This document shows, piece after piece, positions 1 through 9,692 of a stretch of DNA of 64,000 nt. Below the pieces are notes generated by a model, which made no database searches, was not told the origin of the DNA, and saw only the letters and a list, made by a program, of their open reading frames with translations. The position numbers and the translations under genes were made by a program. The DNA is from Clavibacter californiensis. Its GTDB lineage: Bacteria > Actinomycetota > Actinomycetes > Actinomycetales > Microbacteriaceae. Each line of letters begins with the position of its first letter. Position 1 is the first letter of the stretch. The stretch lies in contig NZ_CP040792.1 of the NCBI RefSeq assembly GCF_021952865.1, positions 682,001 through 746,000 on the forward strand, given 5' to 3'.

Positions 1-3000
1 TCGGTGCCCACGCGGTCGCCGGAGACGAGCGCCGCCCGCAGCGTGCCGAGCATCCCGGGCCGGTCGTCGGCCGCGACCAGGAGCATGTCGAGCAGCATCG
101 GCACCGTGTCCCACAGCGTCACGCCGTGCTCGTGCACCAGGTCGAGCCAGCGCGGGGCGTCGCGCTCCTCGCCCTCCTCGGGGAGCACGAGCGCGCCGCC
201 CGCGCCGAGCACGCCCAGCACGTCGAACACGGAGAGGTCGAAGTCGAGCGCGGACAGGGCGAGGATCCGGTCGCGGGCGCCGAGGTCGAGCATCCGGCCC
301 ACGGCGTCGACCGTGGACCACGCCGCGTCGTGCGTGATCTCGACCCCCTTGGGCTCGCCCGTCGACCCCGAGGTGTGGATGACGTAGGCGAGCGCGGATG
401 CGGGAGGGCGCACCGGCTCGGCGAGCGGCTCCTCGGCGGCGGCGTCGGCCGGGCGGAGGAGGGCGGGCGCGCCCGGCTCGTCGCCGCCCGCCGCGGCCGG
501 GTCGTGGGCGATGACCAGGCGGATGCCGCCCGCCCGGTGGACGGCGCGCCGCCGCACGGGAGGCTGCGCGATGCCGACGGGCGCGTACGCGGCGCCCGCG
601 GAGAGGATCCCGATGACCGCCGCCGCCTGGTCCGTGCCGCGCGGGAGCGTGACGCCGACGAGGTCTCCCGGGCCGATGCCGCGGCGCCGGAGCGCCGCGG
701 CGATCCGGAGGGCGCGGTCGGCGAGCTGGCCGTGCGTCACGACGCGCGGCGACGCGCCCGTCCCCGTGAGGAGCGCGGGGGCGTCGGGCGTCCGGAGCGC
801 GGCCTCGTGCACGCCGTCGTGCAGGAGCCGGCCGGGTCGGGGGCCGGCGGGCGCCGCGGTGCGGGCGCGCGCCTGGTCGGCCGGGGGATCCACGGGGAGC
901 GGCGCGTCCCAGTCGCCGGTGGCGAGGTGCGCGAGCGTCGCCGCGTACGCGCCGGACAGCGCGTCGACGAGGCCGGGCGGGAACGCGGCGTCGCGCGCGT
1001 CCACGTCGATCCGCAGCCCGCCGTGGTCCTCCAGCACCTGGACGTCGATGAGCACCTGGGGGGACTGGGACACGCCGTGGATCCGCTCGCCGAAGGAGCC
1101 CGAGACGTCGGCCGAGACGCCGTCGCCCACGCCGATCGCGCTCGTGAACACGACGGGCACCGGCGCCACGGCCGTGCCCTGCAGGCGCGCCCGCTCCCGG
1201 AGGATCCAGGACGCGGGCGCATCGCGGTGGTCGAGGTCGCCGGCGAGGCGCTCCTGGAGCCCGCGGGCCGCCTCCCCCGCGGAGTCCGCTGCGCGGTGGT
1301 CGAGCAGGGTCAGCCCGGTGAAGTCGCCGACGAGGCGCGGCATCTCGGGGTGCACGTCGCGCCGGTCGAAGAGCGTCAGCGTCATGGTGAGGTCGCGCTG
1401 CCCGGTCCAGCGGGAGAGCACGTGGCCGTACGCGGTCGCGAGCATGCTCGTGGGGGTGAGCCCGGCCGCGCGGCAGCGGTCGCGGAACGCGGTCCACCAC
1501 GCGGCGTCGAAGCGGTGCGTGCGGCGCGTGAAGCGCGGCGCCGGATCCGGGTCCGCGAGCGGCAGCCGCGGGGCGTCGGGCATGTCGGCGAGCCGCGCGC
1601 GCCAGTGCTCCTCGTCGACGCGCCGCCGCTCCGGGTCCGGCCGGGTCTGGAGCACGCAGTCGCGGAAGGTCAGCTCGGCGGGGGCGGGCGGGAGCGCAAG
1701 CCCGCGCATGAGCAGGTCGAGCTCGGTGTACAGGATCATGATCGACAGCGCGTCGACCACGGCGTAGTCGACGCCGATCGTGAGGCGCGTGCGGATCCCG
1801 CCCCGGCCGTCGGGGTAGCGCAGCGCGTCGACGTCGAACAGCGGCCACGCGGCGAGGTCGTGCACCCGGTGCGACGTGCGCTCCCGGAACCCCGCGAGGG
1901 CGGCGTCCACCGCGTCCGGATCCGCGTCCGCCGGCACGTCGCGCACGTCGACGCGCACGGGCGGCACCTCCTCGAGCACGCGCTGGGTGCCGTCGGGGTG
2001 GATCACCGTGCGCAGCGTCGGGTGCCGGCGGACGAGCTCGTCGAACGCGGCGGCGAGCCGGTCGAGGTCCTGGCCCTGGCCGTCGAACTCGGTGTGGTGG
2101 TACGTACCCACGCCGCCGAGCGGGATGCGCGGATCGCGGCCCACCGCGTACGCGCGCTGCACGTCGGTGAGCGGGAACGGGTCGTGGGCGTGCGCGGGGT
2201 CGGGCACGATCCGGGCGCGGGCGTCCGCCGGCTCCGGCGCGGTGAGGTGCAGCGTCGCCGCGAAGTCGGCGAGCACCGGGTGCCGGAAGAGCGCGGCGAC
2301 GCTCGCGTCCGCTGCGCCCGCCTCGCGCAGGGCGGCGACGCTGCGGGTGGCCTGGAGGGAGTCGCCGCCCGCGGCGAAGAAGGAGCGGCCGCGCCCGCAC
2401 GGGACGCCGAGCAGCTCGCTCCACACGCGCTCGACGAGCCGCTCCTCGGGTGACCGCGGCGCGTCGTCCGGGGCCGGGGCCGGGGCGGAGGCGGGCCGCT
2501 CGGCGAGCTCCGCGCGGATCCCGGCCCGGTCGACCTTGCCGTTGGGCGTGAGCGGCAGCTCGGCCCGCACGACCACGCGCGCGCAGTCCATCGACGGCGG
2601 CAGCAGGGCGCGCGCGTGGGCCGCGACGTCGTCGGGCGCGACGACGCGGCCGGCCTCGGGCACCACCATCGCGGCGAGCGCGCCCGCGACGGCGACCACG
2701 ACGGCGCGCCGCACGCCCGGGAAGGAGGCCAGCGCGGCCTCGACCTCGCCGGGTTCGACGCGGTGCCCGCGGATCTTCAGCTGGTGGTCCGCGCGCCCGA
2801 GGAACTCGAGCACGGGACGCCCGGCGCCGTCGCGCCGGTACCGGGCACGGTCGCCCGAGCGGTACCAGCGCTCGCCGTCCCGCACCGGGAAGCGGGCGGC
2901 GGTGAGATCGGGATCGCCGCGGTAGCCCCTGGCCAGCGCGTGCCCGCCCACGAGCAGCTCGCCTGGCACGCCGTCGGGACGGTCGCGGCCGCGCTCGTCC

Positions 3001-8255: not shown

Positions 8256-9692
8256 ATGCCCGCAGCCCCCGTGACCCGCGTAGCCGAGCTGCGGATCACC
8301 CGCGACCCGCTCGGCGCCGTCGCCGACCTCGCGCGGGCCTTCCGCCACGAGCCGCACGTGATGCTCGAGGAGGCCGGGCGGTTCTCCTGCGCGATCGGCG
8401 CGTGGGCCGAGGTCGTGGTCGACCGGCGGGTCGTGCGCCTGCGCGTCGCGGGCGAGGACGACGTGGTCGTGCCGTGGCGGGAGCAGCCCCTGCGCGTGGT
8501 GGACCGGCTGCTCGAGGGCCTCGGCCCCGGCCGCGGGCGCGCCTACGGCACCGCGTCCTTCGAGCTGGCGCGCGCGCACGCGGGTCTCCCGGTCGCCGCC
8601 GACGCGGGGGAGCTCCTGCACGTGATCCTGCCGCGCACGGAGGTGACCGTCGCGGACGGCCTCGCGACCGTCCGCTCGGGCGACGCGCGGGAGGCGGCGG
8701 CGGTCGCCCGGATCCTCGGTGCCGCCGAGCCCGCCGCCGAGCCCGCGTCCGGCCCCACCGCCCTCGCGCCCGCGCCCGCGCGCCCCGGCGTCCCGGATCC
8801 CGAGGAGGGTCGCGCGCGCTACCTGGCGGCGGTCGCGTCGGGCATCGCCGCCATCCACGCGGGGGAGCTCCAGAAGGTCGTCCTGTCCCGCCGCGTGCCC
8901 GTCGCGGGCGAGGTGGACCTGCCCGCCACCTTCGTGCGCGGACGCCGGGCCAACACGCCCGCCCGCTCCTACCTGCTGGGCCTCGGCGGGGTCGAGGCGG
9001 TGGGCTTCAGCCCCGAGATCGTCGTGGCGGTGGATGCGCGGGGCACCGTGCGCACCCAGCCGCTCGCCGGCACGCGGGCCCTCGTCGCCGACCCCGTCGA
9101 GTCGCGGCGGCTGCGCGAGGAGCTCCTGTCGGACGCGAAGGAGATCCACGAGCACGCCATCTCGGTGAAGCTCGCGGTGGAGGAGATGGCGCCCGTGTGC
9201 CGCCCGGGCAGCGTGCGCGTCGAGGAGTTCATGGTGGTGGAGGAGCGCGGCACCGTGCAGCACCTGGCCTCCCGGGTGGCGGGCGAGCTCGTCGACGGCC
9301 TCACATGCTGGGACGCGCTGGCCGCGCTGTTCCCGGCCGTCACCGCATCGGGCGTCCCCAAGCGCGCCGCGTTCGACCTCATCCGCCGGCTGGAGGGGCA
9401 CGACCGCGGGCTCTACGCCGGCGCGGTCCTCCGCATCGACGCGGACGGCGCCCTCGACGCGGCCCTGGTGCTGCGGACGCTGTTCCGGCGCGACGGCACG
9501 ACGTGGCTGCAGGCCGGCGCGGGCGTCGTCGGGGCGTCCCGTCCGACGCGCGAGCTGGAGGAGACGCGCGAGAAGCTGGCGAGCATCGCCGACCACGTCG
9601 TGCGCGCCCGCGAACCGGGCGCCGGAGCGCAGGCCGCGGACGAGGCCGGCACCGGCTCCCGCGCCCCGCGGGGAGCCGCCGCCGGCCGGTGA
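8256..9692 (+). CDS. Salicylate synthase (MbtI/Irp9-type chorismate-utilising enzyme)
   Basis: Predicted to convert chorismate via isochorismate to salicylate and pyruvate, supplying the aryl cap. 478 residues, slightly longer than MbtI because of a disordered Ala/Gly-rich tail after about residue 450. The chorismate-binding fold is shown by ELQKVVLSRR near residue 205 (the general-base lysine position of MbtI), LAGTRA near 270, KEIHEHAISV near 295, VQHLASRV near 334, FPAVTASGVPK near 358 and LYAGAVL near 386. No separate isochorismate-pyruvate lyase gene is visible, which favours the bifunctional salicylate synthase over a pure isochorismate synthase. AAGGAG precedes the ATG. Last gene of the operon; ends 9 bases from the convergent DUF2207 gene with no hairpin between. 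Confidence 0.9.
   Translation: MPAAPVTRVAELRITRDPLGAVADLARAFRHEPHVMLEEAGRFSCAIGAWAEVVVDRRVVRLRVAGEDDVVVPWREQPLRVVDRLLEGLGPGRGRAYGTASFELARAHAGLPVAADAGELLHVILPRTEVTVADGLATVRSGDAREAAAVARILGAAEPAAEPASGPTALAPAPARPGVPDPEEGRARYLAAVASGIAAIHAGELQKVVLSRRVPVAGEVDLPATFVRGRRANTPARSYLLGLGGVEAVGFSPEIVVAVDARGTVRTQPLAGTRALVADPVESRRLREELLSDAKEIHEHAISVKLAVEEMAPVCRPGSVRVEEFMVVEERGTVQHLASRVAGELVDGLTCWDALAALFPAVTASGVPKRAAFDLIRRLEGHDRGLYAGAVLRIDADGALDAALVLRTLFRRDGTTWLQAGAGVVGASRPTRELEETREKLASIADHVVRAREPGAGAQAADEAGTGSRAPRGAAAGR

What the first reader, a model, noticed from the sequence alone, without database searches (positions are those of the whole stretch)
1..9692. Salicylate metallophore with two heterocyclisation modules and two cysteine-like A domains
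Two Cy motifs (DMLAGDAIS and DYAVVDALS) rather than HHxxxD, a cysteine-like A1 code (D-L-Y-N-L-G-L-I-H; consensus DLYNLSLIW) and a partial A2 code D-L-F-D-L-S, with a salicylate synthase and a ligase carrying Cys at the Ser240 position of DhbE. Together they predict a salicyl-thiazoline-thiazoline scaffold like pyochelin or coelibactin. The two deviations from the code (G for S, H for W) leave room for Ser/Thr or a modified cysteine.
Basis: partly seen in the sequence, partly recalled or inferred. Interest (0 to 1): 0.75.

Follow-up and report, generated by a model that had tools for sequence, protein, structure and literature searches.

The report
Zinc-controlled coelibactin-type metallophore cluster in Clavibacter
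A Clavibacter bacterium carries a complete gene set for a salicylate-based, metal-grabbing molecule of the elusive coelibactin family, apparently switched on by zinc starvation rather than iron starvation, and its first building block is probably serine or threonine rather than cysteine.

Summary
With the DNA left of base 1 the assembly line has three heterocyclisation modules (ArCP-Cy-A-PCP-Cy-A-PCP; TubC_N-Cy-A-MT-PCP-TE), plus reductase-methyltransferase fusion, saccharopine-dehydrogenase-like protein, methyltransferase, type II thioesterase, ABC pair, salicylate ligase, PPTase and salicylate synthase. Content and order match coelibactin-like Streptomyces loci and published sorangibactin. 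The genus is Clavibacter; 9 of 18 genus genomes carry it at one site, in 9 the flanks adjoin. An exact actinobacterial Zur-box core lies in the divergent promoter of all 9 carriers; no iron-box-like site was seen. A1 (DLYNLGLIH) is not ordinary cysteine-type: 17 of 18 clusters read have its Gly301/His331 in module 1, where sorangibactin takes up serine by isotope feeding. A2 and A3 are cysteine-type. The thioesterase has sorangibactin's rare cysteine nucleophile; the genome has no P450 match. Best prediction: salicyl-(methyl)oxazoline with two thiazolidine-type rings, perhaps a homocysteine thiolactone; a zincophore of the coelibactin kind. Product and metal unproven. New member of a known kind.

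The parts
1..5717 (-). NRPS1: ArCP-Cy1-A1-PCP-Cy2-A2-PCP; the gene runs on left of base 1 to -1077 (genome C1:680923-687717). The rest of the cluster (NRPS2, SDH, reductase-MT, TE2, MT, two ABC halves; genome C1:667092-680926) lies wholly left of the window and is listed in the Full report section
   Evidence: Pfam: Condensation 2 stretches, AMP-binding 2, PP-binding 3; gene call
4959..4985 (-). Cy1 motif DMLAGDAIS
2493..3995 (-). A1 domain, code DLYNLGLIH (Gly301/His331 type; Ser/Thr inferred)
1743..1769 (-). Cy2 motif DYAVVDALS
1..860 (-). A2 domain, code DLFDLSLIW (Cys-type with Asp at 278), part inside the window; runs on to about -657
5744..5758 (.). Zur-type box TGAGAACCGTTATCA in the divergent NRPS1/ligase promoter
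   Evidence: consensus in PMC5472717
5818..7551 (+). salicylate-AMP ligase (Cys268)
7526..8245 (+). 4'-phosphopantetheinyl transferase
   Evidence: 4PPT_N and ACPS
8256..9692 (+). salicylate synthase (start 8256 or 8271)
   Evidence: TIGR03494 416.6 bits; alternative start

Best explanation
The locus is a complete coelibactin/sorangibactin-type metallophore cluster in a Clavibacter genome, controlled by the zinc repressor Zur. Salicylate synthase and ligase load salicylate on the ArCP of NRPS1; module 1 adds serine (or threonine) and cyclises it to an oxazoline; modules 2 and 3 add and cyclise cysteine; the reductase reduces thiazolines to thiazolidines and the methyltransferases methylate them; the cysteine-nucleophile thioesterase releases the chain, possibly onto homocysteine as a gamma-thiolactone; the ABC pair moves the metallophore or its metal complex. 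Shown here: gene content, domain order, codes, promoter box, distribution. Inferred: substrates, ring states, methylation sites, release chemistry, Zur control, metal and transport direction.
For: Domain order and genes equal sorangibactin SrbC (7 domains), SrbD (5 domains, Cy-A-MT-CP-TE), SrbE (PF03435), SrbF/G (methyltransferases), SrbI (reductase), SrbB and SrbK (PMC10127202). Streptomyces and Microbispora loci have the same gene order. The TE is the most conserved part against S. coelicoflavus (65%; 18 other parts 46-64%) and keeps the Cys nucleophile. A1-type signature in 17 of 18 clusters read, one side of a tree branch at 97% SH-aLRT, 96% with the nine code positions masked; serine shown by 13C,15N feeding in sorangibactin. 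Exact Zur-box core in 9 of 9 genus carriers, varying only at consensus-free positions; only site at up to 2 mismatches in 82 kb, and best DtxR-type match in the cluster 8 mismatches of 19; in S. coelicolor Zur binds the equivalent SCO7681/7682 promoter (PMC5472717 passages).
Against: No product, metal affinity or expression data. Box function is inferred from consensus; the genome's own znuA promoter site has one mismatch, and 3 of 6 sampled Streptomyces/Microbispora loci show no box at up to one mismatch. The A1 substrate is transferred from a relative whose own A1 code I could not read; the identical code is from Sorangium cellulosum So0157-2. A Pseudomonas relative (mupirochelin) is proposed to use Thr and to be released by hydrolysis, so a Cys thioesterase need not mean thiolactone. 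Sorangibactin was seen in its native strain under iron deficiency. No P450 and no VOC-like gene in the cluster, both needed for sorangibactin A. A2 has an unexplained Asp278.
Confidence: 0.78

Rival explanations
1. One reading: a pyochelin/yersiniabactin-like salicyl-thiazoline-thiazoline iron siderophore, with A1 activating cysteine.
For: Among solved chains PchE (7emy) gives A1's best single-stretch match (348 bits); the reductase is TIGR01761 as in pyochelin/yersiniabactin; sorangibactin's A domains were all predicted as Cys.
Against: Gly301/His331 instead of Ser/Trp; three modules; SDH, two trans-type methyltransferases and Cys thioesterase match coelibactin/sorangibactin; Zur box, no DtxR-like site.
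Confidence: 0.12
2. Same pathway but A1 takes threonine, giving a 5-methyl-oxazoline, as proposed for coelibactin and mupirochelin.
For: MS/MS-based Thr proposal for mupirochelin; methylated dihydrooxazole predicted for coelibactin; P. cedrina A1 code DLFNLGLIH is close.
Against: The identical code is in Sorangium cellulosum, a relative of the strain whose first module takes Ser.
Confidence: 0.3
3. The cluster is iron-controlled and serves iron; the box is coincidental.
For: Salicylate-heterocycle compounds commonly bind iron (recalled); sorangibactin appears under iron deficiency; two DtxR-type regulator matches exist in the genome.
Against: Box conserved in 9 of 9 carriers with variation only at free positions; mononucleotide shuffles of the intergenic region gave 0 of 20000 exact boxes; the reversed-pattern control is 0 in this genome and 1 in each of 2 of 18 genus genomes.
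Confidence: 0.1

Closest known systems
Sorangibactin cluster srb (Sorangiineae MSr11367; PMC10127202)
   Same: SrbC/SrbD domain order, SDH, two methyltransferases, thiazolinyl imide reductase, salicylate synthase and ligase, Cys-nucleophile TE; A1 code identical to that of the Sorangium cellulosum So0157-2 cluster
   Different: no P450 (no PF00067 match in the genome), no VOC-like gene among the called cluster genes, reductase fused to a methyltransferase, cluster PPTase, TubC_N domain, Zur-type promoter. The srb sequence itself was not seen
Coelibactin cluster SCO7681-7692 of Streptomyces coelicolor (compared through relatives such as L061 S. coelicoflavus, L057, L072; the S. coelicolor record itself was not read)
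   Same: NRPS1-NRPS2-SDH-reductase/MT-TE2-MT-ABC2-ABC1 order, divergent ligase/NRPS1 promoter, Zur control in S. coelicolor (literature), TE 65% identical, reductase-MT fusion
   Different: lacks the P450 present between fusion and TE2 in 15 of the loci; salicylate synthase beside the ligase instead of beyond the ABC genes; A1 DLYNLGLIH against DLWQLGLVH; A2 has Asp278
Mupirochelin (Pseudomonas NCIMB 10586; PMC10080011, passages)
   Same: aryl-oxazoline plus thiazolidines proposed, reductase, two trans methyltransferases
   Different: A1 proposed as Thr, iterative second module proposed, hydrolytic release proposed
Transvalencin/uniformides (Nocardia; PMC11364655, passages)
   Same: in Nocardia loci SDH-reductase adjacency; module-1 G301/H331 code in the two read (N. 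cyriacigeorgica, N. harenae); transvalencin A and uniformide A isolated as zinc complexes
   Different: four modules in those two; Ser-nucleophile TE in 13 of 14 Nocardia loci with an aligned position, including N. uniformis L081; N. stercoris has Cys
Pyochelin and yersiniabactin systems
   Same: salicylate loading, Cy domains, thiazolinyl imide reductase; ABC pair of the IrtAB/YbtPQ type for yersiniabactin
   Different: first A domain of pyochelin is Cys-type (PchE read by eye as DLFNLSLIW); here three Cy/A modules with SDH and two trans-type methyltransferases

Membership tests
coelibactin/sorangibactin-type cluster | ArCP-Cy-A-PCP-Cy-A-PCP plus Cy-A-MT-PCP-TE | tested here: met
coelibactin/sorangibactin-type cluster | saccharopine-dehydrogenase-like protein, thiazolinyl imide reductase and trans methyltransferases beside the NRPS | tested here: met
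coelibactin/sorangibactin-type cluster | Cys-nucleophile thioesterase | tested here: met
   GYCLGG, Cys1632
coelibactin/sorangibactin-type cluster | accessory, not defining: P450 of the CYP105N1/SrbH kind (PMC3430247 passage notes coelibactin-like pathways without it) | tested here: not met
   no heme motif in an ORF in 82 kb; PF00067 no match in the genome
coelibactin/sorangibactin-type cluster | product structure (oxazoline/oxazole, N-methyl-thiazolidines, thiolactone) | not testable with these tools
   no metabolite data
Zur regulon member | box matching taaTGaNAANNNTTNtCANta in the promoter | tested here: met
   exact 15-base core in 9 of 9 carriers; the outer bases of the 21-mer fit only partly
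Zur regulon member | Zur binding and zinc response | not testable with these tools
   a FUR-family gene lies in one run of genes with a Pfam ZnuA and an L28 gene
pyochelin-type siderophore | first module A domain of Cys type (Ser301/Trp331) | tested here: not met
   DLYNLGLIH against PchE DLFNLSLIW
cysteine-activating A domain (A1) | amino-acid exchange with cysteine | not testable with these tools
   code and tree position only
cysteine-activating A domain (A2, A3) | code DL(Y/F)NLSLIW (recalled consensus, and PchE) | tested here: inconclusive
   A3 identical to PchE; A2 has Asp278 in all three Clavibacter loci read

The most novel reading that the evidence does not exclude
Gly301/His331 marks a group of cysteine-like A domains that really take Ser/Thr, so the coelibactin family, whose Streptomyces product is reported as never isolated, would make aryl-oxazoline zincophores, in most members released by a Cys thioesterase as homocysteine thiolactones. 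Clavibacter would hold a P450-free form: predicted [M+H]+ 509.134 (Ser, the formula of sorangibactin C) or 523.150 (Thr), hydrolysed 527.145 or 541.161, made under zinc starvation.
Probability: 0.35. Interest if true: 0.62.

Novelty: new member of a known kind. Interest (0 to 1): 0.45.

Why it matters
Coelibactin has been predicted from the Streptomyces coelicolor genome, but its isolation is reported to have failed (PMC10127202, PMC3430247); a related P450-free cluster narrows its likely structure and explains why predictors may call the first residue Cys. It also suggests that 9 of 18 sampled species of a plant-associated genus can make a zinc-controlled metallophore encoded at one chromosomal site, which bears on competition for zinc on plants. 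The Gly301/His331 rule is directly testable on harmless enzymes.

Tried and rejected
Rejected: A1 as an ordinary cysteine domain. Rejected: the reductase-methyltransferase fusion as a Clavibacter novelty; 20 of 80 loci show it in frame, 16 of them Streptomyces. Rejected on sequence evidence, not excluded: iron control. Considered: ABC pair as exporter; kept as transport of unknown direction. The SDH alignment was not used for the named search because its conserved stretches looked short; the reductase alignment was. The 436-aa protein beside another box gave no solved relative. Literature: 'Clavibacter' with 'zincophore' 0 papers; of 57 papers with at least 3 of Clavibacter/coelibactin/siderophore/nonribosomal peptide, the 20 listed include none with both Clavibacter and coelibactin; two searches were read as listings (20 of 25 and 25 of 42 papers). 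So I found no report of this cluster in those searches.

Papers: PMC10127202 abstract, introduction, section 2.1, first of two parts of 2.2, and section 2.3; PMC3430247, PMC5472717, PMC6103462, PMC10080011, PMC11364655 passages only; PMC3707159 first part of three (tetroazolemycins, salicyl-oxazoline compounds of S. olivaceus; not assigned to this family); all others search listings. Recalled, from no call: GrsA position numbers of the code, DhbE Ser240, the DtxR/IdeR 19-base consensus, and the control-list status of a Clavibacter species.

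Full report
1. What is there. The window is base 682001-746000 of contig C1 of a 3.24 Mb, two-contig genome, which holds three Condensation-domain matches, all in this cluster. DNA left of base 1 was taken from the genome; negative numbers below are window coordinates continued leftward (genome C1 = window + 682000). Gene calls by codon usage and Pfam/NCBIfam give, leftward from the divergent promoter at 5718-5817 and all on the minus strand: NRPS1 -1077..5717 (2264 aa; Condensation 2 stretches, AMP-binding 2, PP-binding 3); NRPS2 -6635..-1074 (1853 aa; TubC_N, Condensation, AMP-binding, methyltransferase, PP-binding, thioesterase); saccharopine-dehydrogenase-like protein (SDH, PF03435) -7777..-6632; thiazolinyl imide reductase (TIGR01761, 292.6 bits against 188.8) fused to a methyltransferase -9693..-7774; type II thioesterase -10609..-9791; methyltransferase -11349..-10606; ABC transporter halves -13166..-11346 and -14908..-13166. 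Rightward on the plus strand: ligase, phosphopantetheinyl transferase, salicylate synthase. A GNAT gene lies beyond on the left and a DUF2207 gene on the right.

2. Both Cy motifs, the A1 code and the partial A2 code are exact. A third Cy motif, DLLVLDHAS, lies in NRPS2. Codes: A1 DLYNLGLIH, A2 DLFDLSLIW, A3 DLFNLSLIW. As a control the same columns, read by eye in the printed alignment, are DLFNLSLIW in PchE (7emy). The ligase's Cys268 aligns with Cys in the salicylate ligases 5wm2 and PchD and with Ser in the DHB ligase 6e8o.

3. Relatives. The named scan with the reductase alignment kept the best 80 of 128 confirmed loci; the top three are Clavibacter (91-93%), so the genus is Clavibacter; 15 kb of the second contig agrees (22 of 36 matching plasmid records are Clavibacter, none covers 80% of it). 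An SDH match lies within 69 of the 80 loci. Streptomyces and Microbispora loci have the same gene order as ours; 20 of 80 loci have the reductase-methyltransferase fusion in frame, and 15 Streptomyces/Microbispora loci carry a P450-like ORF between that fusion and the type II thioesterase. Ours has none in 82 kb and PF00067 has no match in the genome (7 of 14 control genomes ring).

4. First residue. Of the 80 named loci I searched the genomes of 20 and fetched 17 regions (three not fetched). With our own that makes 18 clusters, three of them Clavibacter: 17 have Gly301 and His331 in module 1; Actinomyces israelii is the exception. All later modules have Ser301 except the second Symbiopectobacterium domain, which is Gly/His; residue 331 in the Ser301 domains is Trp except His in one Nocardia harenae domain. 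In a tree of 47 domains from 15 clusters (three Streptomyces loci left out as near-duplicates) the 15 Gly/His domains lie on one side of a branch at 97% SH-aLRT, 96% with the nine code positions masked; both are quick trees without bootstrap. Our A1 code equals that of Sorangium cellulosum So0157-2. In sorangibactin all A domains were predicted as Cys, yet feeding shows one serine and two cysteines. Against a firm serine call: mupirochelin is proposed to use Thr, coelibactin is drawn with a methylated dihydrooxazole, and I could not read the SrbC code itself.

5. Release. The NRPS2 thioesterase motif is GYCLGG (Cys1632). Across 80 loci the nucleophile position is Cys in 54, Ser in 15 (13 Nocardia, 2 Actinomyces), Gly 1, Asp 1, not aligned 9; one Nocardia (N. 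stercoris) is among the Cys. Against S. coelicoflavus the thioesterase is 65% identical, above the 18 other parts compared (46-64%); in Microbispora it is also highest (66%), in Rothia only the PCP is higher, and against Pseudomonas cedrina it is low (31%). In sorangibactin this Cys is essential and release gives a homocysteine thiolactone. Pseudomonas loci also have the Cys while mupirochelin is proposed to be released by hydrolysis, so the two must not be equated.

6. Control. The published motif from 17 actinobacterial genomes is taaTGaNAANNNTTNtCANta, and Zur binds the SCO7681/7682 promoter in S. coelicolor (passages). The core occurs exactly at 5744-5758 and at three places in the genome in all; the reversed pattern gives 0 here and 1 in each of 2 of 18 genus genomes. 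Within one mismatch of a tighter pattern there are six places: this promoter; just before a Pfam ZnuA gene in one run of genes with a FUR-family and an L28 gene; before two CobW_C proteins; before a subtilase; and before a 436-aa secreted protein. Three of the other five places are thus zinc-type genes. All 18 genus genomes have some exact match. The GNAT and DUF2207 matches are 23.8-25.9 kb apart in 8 genomes, on separate contigs in one (G719), and 9-107 bp apart in 9. In G000, G034 and G217 the reductase was also found directly. The nine carriers' promoters align, the box is intact in 9 of 9, and differences in it fall on free positions. Among 15 non-Clavibacter loci, 7 had a hit at up to one mismatch, 6 of them just upstream of NRPS1 (Microbispora, two Streptomyces, Rothia, two Nocardia) and 1 elsewhere (Symbiopectobacterium); 8 had none, among them three Streptomyces, Sorangium and Pseudomonas. 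In our 82 kb it is the only site at up to two mismatches, and the best DtxR-type match in the cluster has 8 of 19 mismatches.

7. Distribution. In the family sample 79 of 299 genomes have some reductase-family match, but only 3 pass the model's cut-off, all in this genus; in the phylum sample 5 of 396, our own included, have the SDH protein at 1e-20. The single site argues for one arrival or repeated loss; I did not separate these.

8. Transport. The ABC halves match IrtA/IrtB and YbtP/YbtQ structures strongly, though eukaryotic ABCB-type entries score slightly higher; direction is not settled by sequence. No substrate-binding protein was seen among the called cluster genes.

9. Verdict. Ordinary in kind but informative: a coelibactin-family metallophore cluster with a Zur-type promoter, a corrected first building block and a predicted mass. 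Unexplained: Asp278 in A2 of all three Clavibacter loci read.

Noticed in passing
genome C1:925161-925175 (L037:5001): A perfect Zur-type palindrome TGAGAACGGTTCTCA lies 62 bp upstream of a 674-aa subtilase/pro-kumamolisin gene; a 234-aa secreted protein gene ends on its other side.
   Followed up: partly
genome C1:1532205-1532219 (L038:5001): Zur-type box TGAGAATCATTCTCA 13 bp before a 436-aa secreted protein with no Pfam match and no solved relative.
   Followed up: partly
window 62324-63921 (-): PhnJ and PhnI of a carbon-phosphorus lyase at the window's right edge.
   Followed up: no
window 11932-13341 (-): Protein with ORF_12_N and Beta-lactamase2 domains near the cluster.
   Followed up: no
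G109, G166, G713, G717, G718, G719, about 14-17 kb from the GNAT gene: A recurrent exact site TGATAAGCGTTCTCA (or its complement) in six Clavibacter genomes; whether it belongs to the same gene as our one-mismatch site before a CobW_C protein was not checked.
   Followed up: no
L139, L143 (Nocardia): Four-module relatives with Ser-type thioesterase and a box-like site (one mismatch) just before NRPS1, in the genus of the zinc-containing transvalencin and uniformides.
   Followed up: partly
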